A stretch of DNA of 8,750 nucleotides from Paracoccaceae bacterium (GTDB taxonomy: Bacteria > Pseudomonadota > Alphaproteobacteria > Rhodobacterales > Rhodobacteraceae). Both the position numbers and the translations under genes were made by a program. The notes under the pieces were generated by a model that was not told the origin of the DNA, did not search any database, and worked only from the letters and a program-made list of their open reading frames with translations. How positions within the stretch are numbered: the first letter of the stretch is position 1; every line of letters begins with the position of its first letter. Shown piece by piece: positions 1 through 8,750 of this stretch. The stretch lies in NCBI GenBank assembly GCA_016764835.1, contig JAESRD010000188.1:1-8750 (forward strand). The letters are read 5' to 3'.

Positions 1-3000
1 GATATTCGCGCGCTCTGGCTGCCTGAGCCGGGGGCCGAAGACGCCGCCGCTAAGCGGCTGCTCGCCCCTTCGGTTCAGCTGCCGCTGATTATGATCTGCG
101 AATATGCGCTGGCCCAGCTTTGGATGAGCTGGGGCGTGACCCCGTCAGCGCTTATCGGCCATTCAATGGGCGAAAACACCGCCGCCTGTCTGGCGGGCAC
201 CATGACATTTGAGGCCTGCATTGGCCTCGTCCATCTGCGCGGTGTGCTGATGGATGGTGTCGAGAAAGGCGGCATGCTGTCTGTGGCGCTACCGGCCAAA
301 GAGTTGCAAGCCTACTTGGGCGATGCGCTTGATCTTGCCGTGGTTAACGGGCCGTCATTGTCGGTCGCCTCTGGCGCTGTTGCCGGGCTTGATGCGTTGC
401 AAAAGCGCCTCGAAGAGCAGGGCATAGATTGCCAACGTATCGCCATTGATATCGCCGCCCATTCGCGTCTGCTCGACCCGATCTTGGAAGAATTTGGCGG
501 TTATCTGCGCGGGATGGACCTCAAAGCCCCGCAAATTCCGATTATTTCCAACCGCACCGGCATTGCCCTGACCGATGCCGAGGCGATGGACCCAGACTAC
601 TGGATCGGCCATCTGCGCGGCACTGTGCGCTTTGCTGACGGTCTGACAACTTTGTCCGAAAACCCCGAGCGCATCTATATCGAAGTCGGCCCCGGTAAGG
701 CTTTATCCTCGCTGGCTGGCCAACATGATAAGCTGGAGGCGAACCAAGTCACCAGCAGTCTGCGGCACCAAAAAGATGTCATTGCTGATGATGCTTATTT
801 CATGACCATGCTGGCCCGTGTCTGGGCCATGGGTGGCCATATCGACTGGGCACAAATTTGGGGCGAAGCGCGGCGCAACCGTGTGGTGCTGCCGAGTTAC
901 CCGTTCCAACATCAGACATATTTTATTGAGCCCGGTCAGGCTGTTAGCGCAGATGAGAGCGAATGGCTGATGCGGGTTGATGACCGTGACCAATGGGGCT
1001 GGCAGCCCGGATGGCAACCTGAATATGCCAAATGCAATATAGATGTCAGCGGTGATCTGTCTGACATGCCTGTGCAGAACTGGCTGATTTTTAACGATGA
1101 TGCGGGCGTCGCCGCGCCGATGGTTGAACGCCTGCGCAAGGCTGGCCAAAACGTGACCAGCGTCACCACCGGCGACGCCTTTGCGCGTCTGTCAGATGAC
1201 ACATTCGTGCTGGCCCCAGAGCGCGGCCGCGAAGGCTATGATCAGCTGATTGCAGAGCTAACAGCGCTCGGCCGCTTGCCGCAACGGATCGCGCATTTCT
1301 GGCTGGTAACGGCCGATGAAAAACACCGCCCCGGCGGCTCGTTCTTTCACCGAGTGCAAGAGCAGGGTTTCTGGAGCCTGTTCTACCTGATGCAAGCTTT
1401 GGCTGCTGAGAGCGCCGATAGCGACCTGCATTTGCTGAGCGTAACGTCCGGCGCGATGCAAGTGCGCGATGAGCGGCTGGCCTATCCATCCAAGGCCACA
1501 ATCGCCGGGCCTATCCGGGTTATTCCGCGTGAATTTCCCGATGTAACGTCTTCGCAGCTCGACATTGAACTTGGCCCCAAGGGCAAGCTGAGCGCCGAAC
1601 AGGCCGAGGCATTGCTCGAAGAGCTGTTGGCCGAACCAGCCAACGTTACCGCCGCTTTGCGCGGCAATCGCCGCTACCGGCTGGGCTGGAAACGCGCCGC
1701 GCTGGACTTTGACGCGCAGCTGGCTGACTTGCCGCTGAAACAAGGCGCCACCGTGCTGCTGACCGGCGGCTTTGGCGGCATCGGGCTGACCGTCGCCCAA
1801 GCGCTGATCAGCCGCTACAGGGCCAATATTGTGCTTATCGGCCGCCAAGAGCTGCCGGAGCGTGATGAGTGGAGCAATTATCTGCGCAATGTCGCGCCCA
1901 ATGACCGGGTCGCCCGGCGTATTCGCGCGGTTCAGGGGCTTGAGGAAGCGGGTGGCCAAGTGCTGACGCTGGCGGCTGATGTCTCGAATATCGAAGAAAT
2001 GCGCGCCGCCGTGGCCAAGGCCGAAGACAGGTTTGGCCAGATTTCTGGCGTGGTTCACGGGGCTGGTGTCATTGATGACGCGCCGATTTTGGCCAAAACA
2101 TCGATGGGGATCGAAGATGTCTTCACCCCAAAAATCCACGGCACACAAGTCATAGATGCGCTGTTTGCCGACGGCACGCTTGATTTTCTGGCGCTGTTTT
2201 CGTCGTCGTCCACCGCCACAGCGCCTGCGGGGCAGGTCGATTATGTGGCAGCAAATGAGTACCTTAACGGTTTTGCCAAGGCCCGCGCCGGGTTCAAAAC
2301 CAAGGTTGTGGCCATCAACTGGGGCATCTGGAACGGCGTCGGCATGGCGGCTGAGGCCATGCAGGCGCGCACCAGCCGCGCCGCGCCGCCGCAAAAGCCG
2401 GTAGACCAACCACTACTCGACTTTGCGGGCTTTGATGATGCGGGCAACCGCATCTTTGCCGCCACTTGGCAGGCCGACAAAAACTGGGTGCTCAACGAGC
2501 ATCGCGTGCTGTCAGGCGACGCGCTTTTGCCGGGTACAGGCTATCTAGAGCTGGCCGCCGAGGCGCTGGCCGCCCAAGGCGAACACGGGCCATTCGAAGT
2601 GCTCGATCTGACATTTTTGCAACCGCTTCGCGCCGATGACGGGGTTGAAACCGCCGTTCGCGTGACCCTGCCGCGTACCAATACTGGCTATAGCTTTTCG
2701 GTGCAGAGCGCCGGGCCGGGCGCGGCCATGGGGCTTAACGCCGAAGCTGAGCTGAGCCTGCTGCCACTCGCCCGGCCTGATCGGCTGGATATCGACGAGA
2801 TTGCGGCTCGGCTTGCCGCGCCGCTTGCTGCGCCGACCGGGGGCTCGCTGCGCTCGCCCCAAGAAGCGCATCTGCGGTTTGGGCCGCGCTGGAACGTGCT
2901 TCAGGAAACCCGGCTGGGCAAGGGCGAAGGGCTGGCCCGGCTGCGGCTGCCTTTGGCGGCTCAGGGCGACAGTGCCTATGCGTTGCATCCCGGTCTGCTC

Positions 3001-4680
3001 GATCTGGCCACGGGCTGGGCGATGGAGCTGATTGAGGGCTACGAGGCCAAGAACCTCTGGGTGCCGGTTTCCTACGGCTCGGTCCGGGTTTACGGCCCGC
3101 TGCCCGCTGACCTCGTGAGCTATGTCAAAATCACCCAAAACGCCGCCTCGGGCAGCGATTTCGCCACGTTCTCAATCGTGCTCGCCGCGGCTGACGGTGC
3201 CGTGGCGCTAGAGGCTGATGGCTTCACCATTCGGCGGCTCGACGGCGCGCTGCGCTTTGGCGCGGCTAGCCCGGCAAATGCGGTAAGTGACGGGCCAATC
3301 CCGCTTTCAGCCGCAGAAGAACGCCTGCAACATAACCTGTCGCAAGGGATTAGCGCCGATGAAGGTGCAAGCGCATTCTTTGCCGCCCTTGGCGCTGGGC
3401 GTAGCCAGATCGTGGTGACATCGCTCGACTTGCCCGCGCTGATTGCCCAAGCCGAAGCTAGCGGGCAGAGCAACGCCGATACAGGCCAAAGCTTTGAGCG
3501 GCCCGAGTTGGACAATGATTTTGCAGCACCAGAAACCGACATTGAAAAACGTCTCGCCGGGTTCTGGCAGGAGCTGCTCGGCCTGGCGCAGGTCGGCATT
3601 GATGACAGCTTCTTCGACCTTGGCGGCCATAGCCTGATCGCCGTACGCCTGTTTGCCATGGTTAAAAAAGGCTACGCCGTCGATTTCCCAATATCGATCT
3701 TGTTTGAAGCGCCAACGATCCGCAAATGCGCAGCACTTATTGCGGCCCAAGGCGGCACGGATACGGCCGAGGCAGCCCCGCAAGGTGCCGCACCTGCGCG
3801 CCCGGCCAGCCGCTTTACACATCTGGTGCCCATGCATCAGGGCGAGGGCGGCTCGAAGACCCCGTTCTTCTTGGTGGCGGGCATGTTTGGCAATGTGCTT
3901 AACCTGCGCCATTTGGCCCACTTGCTGGGTGCCGACCGGCCGTTTTATGGGCTTCAGGCCCGCGGTCTGCTGGGTGAAGAACAGCCGCATACGTCGCTGG
4001 TCGGCGCCGCCCGCGATATGATTGTTGAGATCAAAGCCGTGCAGGCCCAAGGCCCTTATATGGTCGGCGGTTTCTCTGGCGGTGGCATCACTGCCTACGA
4101 GATCGCGCGCCAGCTCAAAGAAGCCGGTGACGAGACTTCGGTGCTGGTCATGCTCGACACGCCTTTGCCCATTCGCCAACCGCTCAGCCGGGCTGACCGC
4201 GCCGCGATCCAGTGGGCCGAGGCCAAGGCGGGCGGCATTGCCTATCCGTTCAACTGGGCCATCCGCCGGGTGCGCTGGGAGTTCGAGAAACGCAAAGTCA
4301 AAACTGATGAGGGCAGCGCCGCGCCACAATTCCATAATGCCGCGATCGAGGCCGCTTTCCTTGGCGCGATAGACGCCTATCAGCTGCAGGACTGGGACGG
4401 GCCGTTGACCCTGCTGCGCCCACCGCTTGTTGGCAAATGGGAGGTCGCACCGGGCCGCTGGGTCAACGATGAGCGGGCGTATGTTCTGCCCGATAATGAT
4501 TGGACATCACATGCGCCAAAGATCGAGGTCTTTGAGGTGCCGGGCGACCATGACAGCATGGTGCTTGAGCCCAATGTTCGCGTGCTTGCCGCCCGTATGC
4601 GCCATGTTATAGAGGCCGCTGAAACCGCCCGCCTTCCCAGCCGCCTCGCGCGCTGGAGCCAGAAAAAGGCGGCCGAATAA
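1..4680 (+). CDS. Type I polyketide synthase, C-terminal part: AT-KR-DH-carrier-TE (5' truncated by window)
   Basis: The frame is open from base 1, so the first ATG (91) is not the start; the N-terminus, expected to hold a ketosynthase, lies outside. 1559 residues are visible. AT (about 1-925): nucleophile in GHSMGE with Ser at 163-165, Arg at 238-240, and catalytic His in IAAHS at 460-462; the post-AT linker ends near 915. Specificity is unclear because the motif is neither HAFH nor YASH. KR structural subdomain: about 975-1700. KR catalytic core (about 1740-2400): GGFGGIG cofactor loop at 1765-1785, Lys 2131, Ser 2203, Tyr 2242 and Asn 2254 all present, and IDD at 2071-2079 suggesting a B-type ketoreductase. 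DH (about 2420-3250): His 2500 and Asp 3001. Carrier (about 3535-3755): FFDLGGHSL with phosphopantetheine Ser at 3631, closer to an NRPS carrier signature. TE (about 3860-4620): GFSGGG Ser 4075, Asp 4156, His 4549. No enoylreductase or methyltransferase is seen. The TE implies chain release by hydrolysis or cyclisation, so this is probably the last module. The DH lying after the KR is unusual. Confidence 0.96.
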   Translation, partial: DIRALWLPEPGAEDAAAKRLLAPSVQLPLIMICEYALAQLWMSWGVTPSALIGHSMGENTAACLAGTMTFEACIGLVHLRGVLMDGVEKGGMLSVALPAKELQAYLGDALDLAVVNGPSLSVASGAVAGLDALQKRLEEQGIDCQRIAIDIAAHSRLLDPILEEFGGYLRGMDLKAPQIPIISNRTGIALTDAEAMDPDYWIGHLRGTVRFADGLTTLSENPERIYIEVGPGKALSSLAGQHDKLEANQVTSSLRHQKDVIADDAYFMTMLARVWAMGGHIDWAQIWGEARRNRVVLPSYPFQHQTYFIEPGQAVSADESEWLMRVDDRDQWGWQPGWQPEYAKCNIDVSGDLSDMPVQNWLIFNDDAGVAAPMVERLRKAGQNVTSVTTGDAFARLSDDTFVLAPERGREGYDQLIAELTALGRLPQRIAHFWLVTADEKHRPGGSFFHRVQEQGFWSLFYLMQALAAESADSDLHLLSVTSGAMQVRDERLAYPSKATIAGPIRVIPREFPDVTSSQLDIELGPKGKLSAEQAEALLEELLAEPANVTAALRGNRRYRLGWKRAALDFDAQLADLPLKQGATVLLTGGFGGIGLTVAQALISRYRANIVLIGRQELPERDEWSNYLRNVAPNDRVARRIRAVQGLEEAGGQVLTLAADVSNIEEMRAAVAKAEDRFGQISGVVHGAGVIDDAPILAKTSMGIEDVFTPKIHGTQVIDALFADGTLDFLALFSSSSTATAPAGQVDYVAANEYLNGFAKARAGFKTKVVAINWGIWNGVGMAAEAMQARTSRAAPPQKPVDQPLLDFAGFDDAGNRIFAATWQADKNWVLNEHRVLSGDALLPGTGYLELAAEALAAQGEHGPFEVLDLTFLQPLRADDGVETAVRVTLPRTNTGYSFSVQSAGPGAAMGLNAEAELSLLPLARPDRLDIDEIAARLAAPLAAPTGGSLRSPQEAHLRFGPRWNVLQETRLGKGEGLARLRLPLAAQGDSAYALHPGLLDLATGWAMELIEGYEAKNLWVPVSYGSVRVYGPLPADLVSYVKITQNAASGSDFATFSIVLAAADGAVALEADGFTIRRLDGALRFGAASPANAVSDGPIPLSAAEERLQHNLSQGISADEGASAFFAALGAGRSQIVVTSLDLPALIAQAEASGQSNADTGQSFERPELDNDFAAPETDIEKRLAGFWQELLGLAQVGIDDSFFDLGGHSLIAVRLFAMVKKGYAVDFPISILFEAPTIRKCAALIAAQGGTDTAEAAPQGAAPARPASRFTHLVPMHQGEGGSKTPFFLVAGMFGNVLNLRHLAHLLGADRPFYGLQARGLLGEEQPHTSLVGAARDMIVEIKAVQAQGPYMVGGFSGGGITAYEIARQLKEAGDETSVLVMLDTPLPIRQPLSRADRAAIQWAEAKAGGIAYPFNWAIRRVRWEFEKRKVKTDEGSAAPQFHNAAIEAAFLGAIDAYQLQDWDGPLTLLRPPLVGKWEVAPGRWVNDERAYVLPDNDWTSHAPKIEVFEVPGDHDSMVLEPNVRVLAARMRHVIEAAETARLPSRLARWSQKKAAE
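4666..4669 (+). promoter_or_regulatory. Weak ribosome binding site for the glycosyltransferase
   Basis: AAGG, preceded by further A residues, is the only purine-rich candidate before the ATG at 4683. The 13-base spacing is longer than usual. With the PKS stop at 4678-4680, re-initiation by ribosomes finishing the PKS is the more likely way this gene is translated. Confidence 0.35.
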
Positions 4681-4682
4681 CC

Positions 4683-5708
4683 ATGGTTGCAGTCGTCCAA
4701 ACCATCATTCTCAACTGGCGCACAGCCGGGCTGACGCTGCGCGCTATTGGCGCGGCGCAGCGTGAGATGAAGCAGCTTAATGGCGGCATCACTGTGGTTG
4801 ATAATGACAGCCAAGACGGCTCGTTTGAGCGGCTGCGCGACGCGGCTGAGATCTTGCCAAGCGTCACCGTTTTGCAAGCGGGCCGCAATGGTGGCTTTGG
4901 TGCGGGCAACAACCACGCCATCCGCGCGGGCCTGCCCGGCGGCAACCGGCCCGACTATGTCTATGTGCTCAATTCTGATGCTTTTCCCGGCCCGGATGCG
5001 ATCAAAATCCTGGCCGAATATCTTGACCGACACCCCAAAGTGGGCTTCGTCGGCAGCTATATTCATGGCGAAGATGACACGCCGCATCTGACAACTTTCC
5101 GCTTCCCGTCGATCTGGTCGGAGCTGGAAGGTGCTGCCCGGTTTGGTCCGATCAGCCGCGCACTGGCCAAATACGCTGTGCCGCGCGAAATAATTGTGCC
5201 GCCACCACCGCCGATACCGGGGCTCGACAAAGGTCCGGTTACCGGCATCAAAGTTGATTGGCTTGCTGGCGCAAGTCTGATGATGCGCCGCGATGTGCTC
5301 GATGACATCGGGTTGTTTGATGAGAATTTCTTCCTCTACTTTGAGGAAACTGACCTGAGCCTGCGCGCCGCCCGCGCCGGATATGAGACCCATTTTGTCG
5401 GTGCGAGCAGGGTCGCGCATATAGGCTCTGTCTCAACCGGTATGAAACAATGGCACCGTGTTCCGGGGTATTGGTTCGATTCTCGCCTCTATTATTTCTC
5501 CAAAAACCACGGACGCCTCTACGCGGCGCTTGCAACTATTGCGCATTTGAGCGGCGGTTTGCTGCATAGAGCCCGCTGCTTGATCTCGCGCAAGAAAACC
5601 GGCGAAGCCCGGTGGTATCTTTGGCACCTATTAACGCATGACATTCTGGCCGCATTAAAGTGCATCGCCAGATTGGGGCGGGCAAAACGCCCGCAAAGAA
5701 AGGACTGA
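4683..5708 (+). CDS. Family 2 glycosyltransferase, rhamnosyltransferase-like
   Basis: A 341-residue protein predicted to move a sugar from a nucleotide-sugar donor to an acceptor in the cytoplasm. The GT-A fold hallmarks are present: an N-terminal strand ending in ILNW, VVDNDSQDGS near residues 38-47, NGGFGAGNN for the nucleotide site, and LNSD with Asp99 in the place of the DxD metal/nucleotide motif. The acceptor half has WLAGASLMMRR followed by GLFDENFFLYFEETDLSLR (acidic residues E221, E222 and D224, the likely catalytic-base region) and a conserved H..S..S stretch after it. These match the rhamnosyltransferase/WbbL-like branch of GT2, and the length is normal. No signal peptide or convincing membrane span is seen. 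The ATG lies 2 bases after the PKS stop, with only a weak, distant AAGG upstream, so translation is probably coupled to the PKS. Five consecutive prolines lie at 5199-5213. Its place between PKS and NRPS genes suggests it glycosylates the cluster product; donor and acceptor cannot be read from the sequence. A surface-polysaccharide role is the alternative. Confidence 0.93.
   Translation: MVAVVQTIILNWRTAGLTLRAIGAAQREMKQLNGGITVVDNDSQDGSFERLRDAAEILPSVTVLQAGRNGGFGAGNNHAIRAGLPGGNRPDYVYVLNSDAFPGPDAIKILAEYLDRHPKVGFVGSYIHGEDDTPHLTTFRFPSIWSELEGAARFGPISRALAKYAVPREIIVPPPPPIPGLDKGPVTGIKVDWLAGASLMMRRDVLDDIGLFDENFFLYFEETDLSLRAARAGYETHFVGASRVAHIGSVSTGMKQWHRVPGYWFDSRLYYFSKNHGRLYAALATIAHLSGGLLHRARCLISRKKTGEARWYLWHLLTHDILAALKCIARLGRAKRPQRKD
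5699..5704 (+). promoter_or_regulatory. Ribosome binding site for the NRPS-like gene
   Basis: AAAGGA lies 5 bases before the ATG at 5710 and overlaps the last codons of the glycosyltransferase. It is a good Shine-Dalgarno match at a normal distance and supports the chosen start. The protein begins directly with the first strand of the formyltransferase-like fold, which also fits this start. Confidence 0.75.
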
Positions 5709-5709
5709 C

Positions 5710-8700
5710 ATGGCAGGTTTTACCGCTGTTCTGATCGGCAATGAATCACTGGCTATCCAATGCGGCGCAATGTTGCGCGAGGCGGGCCATGTGCTGCGCG
5801 CAGTGGTGACCCGCAATGATAGCGTGGCCGCATGGGCGCAGGGCGAAGGGCTGTTGGTTATCGCGCCGGGCAAAGGGCTTGAGCAGCGCATGCAGGGCCT
5901 ACAATTTGACTGGCTGATCTCAGCCGCCAACCTCGATATTCTGCCCGACCCGGTGCTGGCCATGGCCACACGCGGCGCGGTCAACTTTCATGATGGCCCT
6001 TTGCCGCATTATGCCGGGCTAAACGCCCCGGTTTGGGCGCTGATGGCGGGCGAGGCGCAGCACGGCGTCAGCTGGCACCTCATAGAGGGCGGTGTCGATG
6101 AGGGCGACCTTCTGGCGCAGCAAAGCGTTGATATTGCGGATGGAGAAACTGCGCTGAGCCTCAATGCCAAATGCTACGCTGCCGGGATCGAGAGCTTTGC
6201 CACCGTTATTGAGCAGCTGGCCACGCCCGCGCCGGTGCGCCAGGCTCAAGACCTGAGCCAGCGCAGTTATTTTGGCCTAAACCACCGGCCAGACGGCCTC
6301 GGCTGGCTCGATTTCACCCAATCTGCGGCGACGCTGGCCCGGCTTGTGCGCGCGCTTGATCATGGCGACTATGCCAACCCGGTCAGCTTGCCAAAGTTTG
6401 AGGCGGCCGGCCAAATCTGGCTGGCCCGTTCCGCCCGGCTTGCTGATGGAGAAGGTGCCCCCGGCGAAGTTCTGCAAGCGGCCGAGGGCGCGCTGACAAT
6501 CGCCTGTGGCAGCGGCGCTTTGCTGCTGTCGCGCCTGAGCGCTGCCGATGGCTGCCCCGGCGCGCCGCGCGTGCAAGCGGGTACCCGGCTTACTGCCGGA
6601 CCTTGCCCGATATCTGAAGAAATATTGGCCAAAGCCGCCAAGACCGAGCCGTTTTGGCGCGCCCGGTTGCAAAACTTTTGCCCCGCCGCCCTGCCACTGA
6701 GCGACGGGACAGAGCGCGAAGGTGCTTTGGAAAAGAACATTACCGGGCTGACCCCGGCCTGCTTCGCGCTGCTTGGTGCGCGCTTGGGCGACGGCTGCGC
6801 TGATCTGGCGATTGGCTTGCCAGACGGCGCGGCAGGTTACGTCAGCGCTTGGGTGCCGGGCCGGTTTGATGCGGCCTTGCCGCTTGGCGCGGCTCAAGCG
6901 GGCTTTGCCAAAGCCCAGGCAGCGGCCATTGAGCGCGGCGGTTACCCCGCTGATCTGCTCGCCCGCATGCCCAATATCACGCCCGCAACACCGGCCTTCG
7001 CCGTGGCCGATGCGCCGTTGGCCGGGGCTGCCCTAACCCTTGTTGGCACCAAGCTCATCGGCGACACGACATTGATTTCAACGGCCCAGTTTGAGCTGAT
7101 CTGCGCGCGGCTGAGCCATTTGGTTACTGTGTTTGAAAGCGCCGACGCCACTGCCCCCGCCAACACCCTGCCGATCTTGCCCGAGGCCGAACGCCAGCTG
7201 CTGCTCAACGGCTGGAACAATACGTCCGAGAGCTTCGACGACAGCCAAGGCATCCAGTCCATGATCGCGGCCACAGCCGAAAACATGCCGCTGGCCGAGG
7301 CACTGGTTTGCGAGGCCGAAAACCTGACCTATGCGCAGCTAGATGCGCGCGCAAACCAAATGGCCCATGTGCTGCGCAAGGCTGGCGTCAAACGCGGCGC
7401 ACTTGTCGGGCTGTACCTGTCACGCTCAGCTGATCTTGTCGCCGGGGCGCTGGCGATCTGGAAGGCTGGCGGCGCCTATGTGCCGCTTGATCCGGCCTAT
7501 CCGGCCGACCGTATTGCGCTGTTTATTGAAGATAGCGGCGCGCAGGTGATCTTGACTGAGACCGACCTACAAGGGCAACTGCCCGCCCATAATGCCACCA
7601 TGGTTTGCACCGATGATCCGGCCATTGCCGCAGCACCCACCAGCGCGCCCGATGAGGGCTGCGGCCCAAGCGATCTTGCCTACCTGATCTATACGTCTGG
7701 CTCGACCGGACGGCCTAAAGGCGTGATGATCGAGCACCGCAATGTGGCCAATTTCTTTGCTGGCATGGATGCGCGTATTCCGCATGATCCGCCCGGCGTT
7801 TGGATGGCGCTGACGTCGCTTTCCTTCGACATTTCGGTGCTCGAGCTGTTCTGGACGCTCGCGCGCGGTTTCAAGCTGGTCATGTCCGGCGATGAAAGCC
7901 GGGCATTGGTCTCTGACGGCCCGGTCGAGGCCCCGGTCTCCGATCAAGAAATGGAATTCTCGCTGTTCTATTGGGGCAATGACGATGGCGTTGGCCGCGG
8001 CAAATACCGGTTGCTGCTGGAGGGCGCTAAGTTCGCCGATAATAATGGGTTCTGCGCGGTTTGGACGCCAGAGCGCCACTTTCACGCCTTTGGCGGACCA
8101 TACCCGAACCCGTCTGTCACCGGTGCTGCCGTGGCTGCGATCACGCAAAATATCGGCGTCCGTTCGGGCAGCTGTGTCGTGCCATTGCACCACACGGCGC
8201 GCATCGCCGAAGAATGGGCGGTTATTGATAACCTGACCGAAGGCCGCGCCGGATTGGCCGTCGCCTCTGGCTGGCAGCCTGATGATTTCGTGCTCAACCC
8301 GGTCAACTCGCCGCCAGAAAACAAGCCGGCCATGTTCCGCGCGATTGACGATCTGCGCCGCCTTTGGGCCGGTGAGCCGGTTGAGTTCCCCAAAGCCAAC
8401 GGCGAAATGTTTGCCGTTGTGACCCAACCGCGCCCAGTTTCGAAGATACTACCGATCTGGGTGACCACGGCGGGCAACCCCGACACCTGGGTTGAGGCCG
8501 GCAAAATGGGCACCAATGTGCTGACCCACCTGCTTGGCCAGTCGATCGATGAGGTTGGCGGCAAGATCAAACTTTACCACCAAGCCTTGCGCGACGCGGG
8601 CCATGATCCTGCTGACTTTAAGGTCACCCTGATGCTGCATTCCTTCGTCGCCGACAGCGAGGAGGAGGCCCGCGAGATCGCCCGTGAGCCGATGAAGGAT

Positions 8701-8750
8701 TACCTGCGCTCAGCGGCTGGCCTGATCAAACAATATGCATGGGCCTTCCC
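5710..8750 (+). CDS. NRPS-like protein: formyltransferase - condensation remnant - adenylation domain interrupted by luciferase-like monooxygenase (3' truncated by window)
   Basis: The frame stays open from ATG 5710 to the right edge (1013 residues seen). Residues 1-175 resemble the formyltransferase catalytic domain that uses 10-formyl-tetrahydrofolate: N93 and H95 in NFHDGPLPHYAGLN and D130 in GGVDEGD have the Asn-His-Asp arrangement and nearly the spacing of methionyl-tRNA formyltransferase. Residues about 180-280 resemble the formyltransferase C-terminal subdomain. Residues about 290-510 resemble parts of a condensation domain (FWRARL start, YPADLL, and the LPILPEAERQLL exit linker), but the region is about half normal length and has no HHxxxDG. 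The adenylation domain then shows A1 (LTYAQL, 539), A2 (KAGGAYVPLDP, 585), A3 (YTSGSTGRPKG, 661-671) and A4 (FDIS, 706), whose Asp is the usual alpha-amino-binding residue. After FKLVM (721-725) the A domain breaks off. From about 748 a flavin-dependent luciferase-like monooxygenase of the MupA/Atu3671 type begins, with WTPERHFHAFGG at 785-796. The rest of the monooxygenase, A5-A10 and presumably a carrier are expected beyond the window. The gene lies one base after the glycosyltransferase. Confidence 0.93.
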   Translation, partial: MAGFTAVLIGNESLAIQCGAMLREAGHVLRAVVTRNDSVAAWAQGEGLLVIAPGKGLEQRMQGLQFDWLISAANLDILPDPVLAMATRGAVNFHDGPLPHYAGLNAPVWALMAGEAQHGVSWHLIEGGVDEGDLLAQQSVDIADGETALSLNAKCYAAGIESFATVIEQLATPAPVRQAQDLSQRSYFGLNHRPDGLGWLDFTQSAATLARLVRALDHGDYANPVSLPKFEAAGQIWLARSARLADGEGAPGEVLQAAEGALTIACGSGALLLSRLSAADGCPGAPRVQAGTRLTAGPCPISEEILAKAAKTEPFWRARLQNFCPAALPLSDGTEREGALEKNITGLTPACFALLGARLGDGCADLAIGLPDGAAGYVSAWVPGRFDAALPLGAAQAGFAKAQAAAIERGGYPADLLARMPNITPATPAFAVADAPLAGAALTLVGTKLIGDTTLISTAQFELICARLSHLVTVFESADATAPANTLPILPEAERQLLLNGWNNTSESFDDSQGIQSMIAATAENMPLAEALVCEAENLTYAQLDARANQMAHVLRKAGVKRGALVGLYLSRSADLVAGALAIWKAGGAYVPLDPAYPADRIALFIEDSGAQVILTETDLQGQLPAHNATMVCTDDPAIAAAPTSAPDEGCGPSDLAYLIYTSGSTGRPKGVMIEHRNVANFFAGMDARIPHDPPGVWMALTSLSFDISVLELFWTLARGFKLVMSGDESRALVSDGPVEAPVSDQEMEFSLFYWGNDDGVGRGKYRLLLEGAKFADNNGFCAVWTPERHFHAFGGPYPNPSVTGAAVAAITQNIGVRSGSCVVPLHHTARIAEEWAVIDNLTEGRAGLAVASGWQPDDFVLNPVNSPPENKPAMFRAIDDLRRLWAGEPVEFPKANGEMFAVVTQPRPVSKILPIWVTTAGNPDTWVEAGKMGTNVLTHLLGQSIDEVGGKIKLYHQALRDAGHDPADFKVTLMLHSFVADSEEEAREIAREPMKDYLRSAAGLIKQYAWAF

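What the first reader, a model, noticed from the sequence alone, without database searches (positions are those of the whole stretch)
7882..8750. Luciferase-like monooxygenase inserted in the adenylation domain between motifs A4 and A5
The A domain is orthodox through A4 and the following strand (FKLVM, ending at 7884). It then switches, through a short linker, to a flavin-dependent monooxygenase sequence starting near 7951 (FSLFYWGN, WTPERHFHAFGGPYPNP, HHTARIAEEWAVIDNL). Seen: the junction and the monooxygenase motifs. Known: interrupted A domains exist, and the MupA/Atu3671 LLM family occurs in siderophore and mupirocin-type clusters. Inferred: the insert oxidises the aminoacyl or chain substrate held on the adjacent carrier. 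A related Agrobacterium siderophore enzyme (fabrubactin pathway) has been proposed to cause a Favorskii-like backbone rearrangement, so the chemistry here may be unusual.
Basis: partly seen in the sequence, partly recalled or inferred. Interest (0 to 1): 0.75.

Follow-up and report, generated by a model that had tools for sequence, protein, structure and literature searches.

The report
Glycine-loading enzyme with built-in oxygenase
A bacterial peptide-assembly protein has an oxygen-using flavin enzyme spliced into its amino-acid-loading domain; this splice is already known from other assembly lines that load glycine, but here it sits in an unusual starting module that also carries a formyl-transfer domain and often lies near sugar-polymer genes.

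Summary
Observation confirmed. ORF 5710-8750 encodes a formyltransferase (FT), a truncated condensation-like stretch and an adenylation (A) domain, orthodox through A4; a TIGR04020 luciferase-like monooxygenase (LLM) starts at 7951. The window is the whole contig, so A5-A10 of this copy cannot be read. In relatives from 86 loci the A domain resumes after the LLM: A5 in 86, A10 in 83, carrier in 81. It is interrupted, not truncated.

The architecture is known: myxothiazol and melithiazol synthetases carry a flavin monooxygenase between a4 and a5 of a glycine A domain. Code columns D-I-L-Q-x-G-M-I-W are invariant in 67 aligned relatives, one residue from the published code of such glycine domains. 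Best reading: an initiation module that loads glycine, N-formylates it, alpha-hydroxylates it (FMNH2/O2) and hands it to the neighbouring polyketide synthase. The Favorskii idea found no support.

Unusual: FT in place of a working condensation domain, and a PKS-glycosyltransferase-NRPS trio that often sits near polysaccharide genes (52 of 68 longer loci, 0 of 20 control stretches). Activity and product are untested.

The parts
1..4680 (+). 3' part of a type I polyketide synthase (5' end off the contig): AT, KR, DH, ACP, thioesterase. The relative L001 is KS-AT-KR-DH-ACP-TE.
   Evidence: Pfam; KS, AT, DH, ACP and TE catalytic residues and the KR tyrosine conserved in 80-82 of 82 aligned PKS proteins; the column taken for the KR serine is S in 59 and T in 20 of 82
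4683..5708 (+). Family 2 glycosyltransferase between PKS and NRPS genes
   Evidence: Pfam; a homologue lies just upstream of the NRPS gene in 78 of 80 genome loci
5710..8750 (+). NRPS initiation-module gene, cut by the contig end: FT - truncated C-like - A interrupted by LLM (then A5-A10 and carrier in relatives)
5710..6549 (+). Formyltransferase domain (Formyl_trans_N and _C); triad N92, H94, D130
   Evidence: triad columns invariant in 87 of 87 aligned proteins (the sequences were cut around an N-x-H-LP motif, so D130 is the independent column)
6577..7209 (+). C-like stretch, read as a truncated condensation domain without HHxxxDG
   Evidence: no Pfam Condensation match in the window or L001 proteins; last 59 columns of the family match the end of C domains, hhalign probability 56%, E 1e-4
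7216..7914 (+). A domain, N-terminal part with A3 (YTSGSTGRPKG) and A4 (FDISVLELF, 7825-7851)
7951..8750 (+). FMN-dependent luciferase-like monooxygenase inserted between A4 and A5 (first about 265 of about 345 residues)
   Evidence: TIGR04020 381.7 bits; closest solved relative PuwE 6ket, E 5e-86

Best explanation
The gene encodes an initiation module FT-(C-like)-A[LLM]-T of a small hybrid NRPS-PKS. Shown by sequence: the LLM lies between A4 and A5 and, in relatives, the A domain resumes with the later motifs and a carrier; FT and PKS active-site residues are conserved. Inferred, in order: (1) the A domain adenylates glycine and loads it on T; (2) FT formylates the glycyl amine from 10-formyltetrahydrofolate, giving the N-acyl group that a C domain gives in other A[LLM] modules; (3) the LLM, with FMNH2 and O2, hydroxylates the alpha carbon of N-formylglycyl-S-T; (4) the N-formyl-(alpha-hydroxy)glycyl unit goes to the KS of the neighbouring PKS, is extended once, reduced by KR, dehydrated by DH and released by TE; (5) the glycosyltransferase and nearby polysaccharide genes use or decorate the product. 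Subjective confidence by step: interruption and resumption 0.97, glycine 0.9, N-formylation 0.8, alpha-hydroxylation 0.6, retention of the hydroxyglycine carbons for extension 0.45.
For: LLM insert. Resumption: A4 and A5 in 86 of 86 relatives, A10 in 83, T in 81; 67 of 86 could be scored for the full substrate code, 52 of them DILQMGMIWK and 3 DILQLGMIWK (the search patterns themselves require D235 and G301). Alignment without that limit: code columns D, I, L, Q, G, M, I, W invariant in the 67 genome-locus relatives aligned (of 80), position 299 variable. Published: four monooxygenase-bearing Gly domains share DILQLGMIWK and all monooxygenase modules in that survey sat in Gly domains (PMC12283262, passages and Discussion). 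Published: a4-a5 monooxygenase in myxothiazol and melithiazol Gly modules; alpha-hydroxyglycine inferred by MS in solanimycin B (PMC10204066, passages and section 12 part 1). FT triad 87 of 87. N-formylglycine loading in front of a PKS is proposed for conglobatin CongA (PMC4504003, passages). FT or a relaxed C motif precedes 225 of 241 A[LLM] domains. Gene order in 80 genome loci: PKS 78, GT2 78, PPTase 61.
Against: I found no reported activity, product or structure for a member of this clade. In the window only three code positions (D, I, L) are readable. In the 16 of 241 A[LLM] domains without a found N-acylating motif, 8 lie near a protein start and 8 gave no motif. In the published a4-a5 cases the hydroxylation ends in backbone cleavage, not retention.
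Confidence: 0.6

Rival explanations
1. Oxidative cleavage as proposed for myxothiazol and melithiazol: alpha-hydroxylation of N-formylglycyl-S-T is followed by loss of formamide, leaving a two-carbon glyoxylyl thioester that primes the PKS. FT would then serve to create the leaving amide.
For: Same insertion site and nearly the same substrate code as the Gly-cleaving modules. The first LLM product would be the same carbinolamide.
Against: In the published cases the cleavage ends the chain and the glyoxylyl is hydrolysed by a TE; here a PKS follows, and I recall no glyoxylyl-primed PKS (not searched). Solanimycin B shows that cleavage need not follow, though its insert lies between a8 and a9.
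Confidence: 0.2
2. The LLM acts elsewhere: N-hydroxylation of glycine to give, after formylation, an N-formyl-N-hydroxyglycine hydroxamate (metal ligand), or alpha-hydroxylation of the polyketide chain in trans as proposed for LLMs of PKS clusters.
For: LLMs of PKS clusters are assigned varied oxidations, and TIGR04020 occurs in NRPS and PKS systems (PMC8739492 passages). Formyl plus hydroxylamine would make a ligand.
Against: The insert goes with glycine-type codes in the listed distant proteins, and the published A[monooxygenase] glycine modules oxidise the alpha carbon. No siderophore uptake gene is annotated in the five annotated plasmid neighbourhoods of about 33 kb (the tables are incomplete; L085 has no annotation).
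Confidence: 0.12
3. Truncated A domain fused to an oxygenase, or a decayed gene without function.
For: The window itself ends inside the LLM.
Against: A5 in 86 of 86 relatives; conserved FT, A, LLM and PKS motifs.
Confidence: 0.02

Closest known systems
Myxothiazol and melithiazol Gly modules with monooxygenase between a4 and a5 (MtaG/MelG; these gene names recalled, insertion site and chemistry from PMC10204066 section 12)
   Same: Insertion site, glycine substrate (here predicted), flavin monooxygenase
   Different: Those release an amide and leave a glyoxylyl thioester for a TE; here an initiation module with FT, a truncated C-like stretch, no TE on the protein (L001), and a PKS as partner. 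Their sequences were not compared here
Solanimycin SolF module 4
   Same: Gly A domain with inserted flavin monooxygenase; alpha-hydroxyglycine assigned in the product (PMC10204066)
   Different: Insert lies between a8 and a9; not an initiation module
Conglobatin CongA / oxazolomycin OzmO and linear gramicidin LgrA initiation modules (F-A-T)
   Same: FT-A-T initiation; CongA predicted to load glycine and proposed to formylate it for a PKS (PMC4504003 passages); LgrA is the best solved match
   Different: No monooxygenase in those A domains (recalled); CongA leads to an oxazole
PuwE (PDB 6ket), LLM chain of 362 residues
   Same: Closest solved LLM, 291.6 bits over 260 residues of the window part
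   Different: Solved as an LLM alone, not inside an A domain
MupA/Atu3671 family, NCBIfam TIGR04020
   Same: Score 381.7 against cutoff 244.45; NCBI gives relatives this name
   Different: The family covers several architectures; Atu3671 and MupA themselves were not examined

Membership tests
TIGR04020 (MupA/Atu3671 LLM) | Profile score above the curated cutoff | tested here: met
   381.7 bits, cutoff 244.45, although the window holds only profile positions 1-261 of 341
MtaG/MelG-type A[monooxygenase] domain | Monooxygenase after a4 of an A domain, before a5 | tested here: met
   Junction by alignment to LgrA module 2 and to an uninterrupted A domain from L058; the a5 side seen in relatives only
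MtaG/MelG-type A[monooxygenase] domain | A domain resumes with A5-A10 | tested here: inconclusive
   Met in relatives: A5 86 of 86, A10 83 of 86; the window itself ends before A5
MtaG/MelG-type A[monooxygenase] domain | Glycine specificity code | tested here: inconclusive
   Window shows D, I, L only; relatives invariant D-I-L-Q-x-G-M-I-W, one residue from the published DILQLGMIWK
MtaG/MelG-type A[monooxygenase] domain | C domain before the A domain and TE after the module | tested here: not met
   FT and truncated C-like stretch before; the relative L001 has no domain after T
MtaG/MelG-type A[monooxygenase] domain | Alpha-hydroxylation of glycine | not testable with these tools
   Needs protein and MS
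Formylating initiation module (LgrA/CongA type) | N-terminal FT with Asn-His-Asp triad, then A and T | tested here: met
   FT and triad in the window; T seen in relatives (for L001; 81 of 86)
Formylating initiation module (LgrA/CongA type) | Formylation needed before chain transfer | not testable with these tools
   Reported for linear gramicidin (as cited in PMC4504003)
FbnE / fabrubactin Favorskii-type enzyme | Homology to FbnE and its pathway | not tested
   No FbnE sequence was in hand; the primary paper is not held

The most novel reading that the evidence does not exclude
A two-protein assembly line (FT-A[LLM]-T plus KS-AT-KR-DH-ACP-TE) turns glycine into a formylated, alpha-oxidised (or glyoxylyl-primed) short acyl unit that is transferred to a sugar with the co-conserved glycosyltransferase and decorates an exported polysaccharide. 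Assembly-line chemistry would thus serve cell-surface polymer synthesis in many Rhodobacterales and in unrelated bacteria such as Deinococcus, where the PKS ends in a condensation domain instead of a TE.
Probability: 0.2. Interest if true: 0.7.

Novelty: new variant of a known kind. Interest (0 to 1): 0.4.

Why it matters
The A4-A5 monooxygenase insertion is a recurrent design that goes with glycine codes, and this clade offers a small, two-protein version in named, cultured strains. It suggests a simple rule, that the glycine nitrogen is acylated before alpha-hydroxylation: the acyl group would come from a C domain in many A[LLM] proteins and from an FT domain here. The link to polysaccharide loci would, if it reflects function, tie assembly-line chemistry to surface polymers.

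Tried and rejected
Whole genome of the window: none held. Extending the window: its protein is known from one contig of 8750 bp. Condensation function of the C-like stretch: rejected for want of a Pfam match (window, L001) and of HHxxxDG (regex hits upstream of the A domain only in L067, which I did not look into, and in Nostoc L087, which has a real C domain). Truncated-A-domain reading: rejected on 86 relatives. Favorskii link: no evidence in reach. Structure model: failed, then unavailable, so no fold search was run. Regex counts that were wrong and were redone: one search read code positions 330/331 one residue off (corrected); the FT aspartate patterns missed cases (replaced by an alignment). 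The PKS motif scan picked up only one protein and was replaced. The patterns require D at 235 and G at 301, so those two letters are not independent there. Literature searches: 0 papers; 'fabrubactin' 5 papers (passages of two seen); 'interrupted adenylation domain' + monooxygenase 7 papers (passages of three seen, four as listing only); 'Atu3671' 0; MtaG + myxothiazol 1, listing only; exopolysaccharide + type I PKS + nonribosomal + luciferase-like monooxygenase 0; formyltransferase domain / luciferase-like monooxygenase / nonribosomal peptide, two of three, 9 papers (passages of one seen); roseobacter + NRPS + PKS + exopolysaccharide + glycosyltransferase + plasmid 1 (passages seen); formylglycine set 3 (passages of one seen).
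Full report
What is in the window. Three co-directional genes lie almost end to end: the 3' part of a type I PKS (1-4680), a family 2 glycosyltransferase (4683-5708) and an NRPS gene that runs off the contig (5710-8750). Pfam gives AT, KR, DH, ACP and thioesterase in the first, and FT, AMP-binding (to profile position 240 of 384) and Bac_luciferase in the third. TIGR04020 matches at 381.7 bits against a cutoff of 244.45. The coordinates and motifs in the finding are right: FKLVM ends at 7884 and the LLM starts at 7951. G+C and frame do not change at the junction. The window is the whole contig (its protein is known from one contig of 8750 bp), and no genome is held for it.

Is the A domain interrupted or truncated? 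The window cannot say, its relatives can. Of 489 confirmed candidates in the genome collection 80 loci were kept, and six plasmid loci were added. All 86 hold a long frame with the LLM (1222-1824 aa). After the LLM, A5 is found in 86 of 86, A10 in 83 and the carrier motif in 81; at least three of the five without a carrier motif (L023, L061, L075) have short frames. Alignment to LgrA, the best solved match, stops at about chain residue 1435 and resumes at 1446 of its second A domain, so almost nothing of the A core is lost.

Substrate. In the 67 genome-locus relatives that I aligned (of 80) the code columns D, I, L, Q, G, M, I, W are invariant and position 299 varies. A regex count scored 67 of 86 relatives: 52 DILQMGMIWK, 7 DILQFGMIWK, 3 DILQLGMIWK and 5 others; 19 could not be scored. 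In two database searches, all 120 LLM anchors of the first listing and 117 of 121 of the second (120 listed proteins each, the second seeded from a Nostoc protein) could be scored, and every scored code reads DIL-x-x-G-[M/L]-[I/V]-W. The patterns themselves require D235 and G301, so the weight lies on I, L, M/L, I/V and W; at position 278 Q dominates but other letters occur, some perhaps misread by the pattern. The searches reported 7549 and 7934 proteins at E <= 1e-30, but those counts may include proteins that match by A-domain parts alone; only the listed ones were examined. A survey of 2051 A domains states that four Gly domains with monooxygenase share DILQLGMIWK and that all its monooxygenase modules were in Gly domains (PMC12283262; passages, and Discussion). 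In the window itself only D, I and L can be read.

Known precedent. PMC10204066 (passages; section 12 part 1) states that myxothiazol and melithiazol carry the flavin monooxygenase between a4 and a5 of the adenylation domain, that the glycyl alpha carbon is hydroxylated, and that the carbinolamide then breaks to an amide and a glyoxylyl thioester; in solanimycin the insert is between a8 and a9 and the alpha-hydroxyglycine is kept. So the architecture in the finding is already known. The gene names MtaG and MelG are recalled, and their sequences were not compared.

What differs here. The module starts with an FT domain whose Asn-His-Asp triad is invariant in 87 of 87 aligned proteins (window plus 86 relatives; Nostoc L087 and Deinococcus L088 left out; the sequences were cut around an N-x-H motif, so Asp is the independent column). 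The condensation domain is reduced to a stretch that only resembles the end of a C domain (hhalign probability 56%, E 1e-4). Of 241 A[LLM] domains in the listed proteins, 225 are preceded by an FT (120, of which 115 come from the search seeded with an FT-bearing protein) or a relaxed C motif (105); 8 of the other 16 lie close to a protein start and 8 gave no motif. In one midpoint-rooted FastTree run of 135 domains the window's clade (12 sampled members, support 0.66; the window itself was not in the tree) lies in a wider group with Deinococcus L088 and C-A[LLM] proteins (37 members, support 0.98). My inference: an elongation-type A[LLM] module became an initiation module by losing C and gaining FT, which now supplies the N-acyl group. 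N-formylglycine loading in front of a PKS is proposed for conglobatin (PMC4504003 passages); a review says F domains are very scarce in NRPSs (PMC8949500 passages).

Neighbourhood. In 80 genome loci a homologue of the PKS lies upstream on the same strand in 78, GT2 just upstream in 78 and a PPTase just downstream in 61, some contigs being short. Among the 68 loci of at least 22 kb, 52 hold at least one of four polysaccharide gene types, all through flippase (49) or sugar transferase (15), since the exporter and O-antigen ligase queries from Aminobacter hit none; 0 of 20 control stretches of 20 kb from five of the same genomes do. Caveats: the query proteins were picked from these loci or their relatives, the controls are few, and 16 of 68 loci lack such genes. 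Annotated plasmids show polysaccharide genes around it in Ruegeria, Paracoccus and Aminobacter; in Aminobacter the PKS gene is divergent and no GT2 lies between. Aliiroseovarius L086 has no such genes and a different, larger NRPS/PKS partner, and L085 has no annotation. In Deinococcus L088 the FT is a separate gene, the PKS ends in a condensation domain instead of a TE, and capsule genes lie nearby. The trait is patchy: 8 of 61 genomes around one relative, itself included, carry the long insert type. P. inhibens has a PKS (Inhi_1972) and an NRPS (Inhi_1974) two locus tags apart (PMC4062626 passages); this would fit the same trio but was not tested.

Mechanism. Best reading: load glycine, formylate, alpha-hydroxylate, pass to the PKS, extend once, reduce, dehydrate, release by TE. 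Catalytic residues of KS, AT, DH, ACP and TE and the KR tyrosine are conserved in 80-82 of 82 PKS proteins; the column I took for the KR serine is S in 59 and T in 20 of 82. The hydroxylation step rests on homology and precedent alone; retention versus cleavage of the carbinolamide is open. LLMs in PKS clusters are assigned alpha-hydroxylation or chain shortening (PMC8739492 passages). The Favorskii proposal comes from the finding; the passages I saw (PMC12971057) only name FbnE as the proposed maker of the fabrubactin alpha-hydroxycarboxylates, and nothing here supports such chemistry.

Verdict. A real, correctly placed observation of a known kind, in a less usual setting. Interest 0.4: specialists know A[monooxygenase] glycine domains, but a formylating initiation version near polysaccharide loci was not found in the searches I ran, which cover open-licence papers only and were seen as listings and passages.

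Noticed in passing
L087 10549-15999 (Nostoc plasmid); proteins listed: In L087 the A domain is interrupted twice: LLM between A4 and A5 and an FkbM-type methyltransferase between A8 and A9. A gap of more than 250 residues between A8 and A10 occurs in 17 of 79 A[LLM] domains of the list where both motifs were found; what fills it was not tested in those.
   Followed up: partly
window 1-4680; L001 1750-8199: The PKS has KR before DH (KS-AT-KR-DH-ACP-TE), the reverse of the usual order (usual order recalled); KR tyrosine and DH His/Asp are conserved.
   Followed up: partly
L088 15324-21986 (Deinococcus plasmid): The related PKS ends in a condensation domain instead of a thioesterase, which suggests release onto an amine or alcohol.
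   Followed up: no
proteins P0140, P0171, P0172, P0214, P0223: FT-A[LLM]-T also heads longer NRPS proteins that go on with a further A domain, so the formylating A[LLM] starter is not confined to PKS partners.
   Followed up: no
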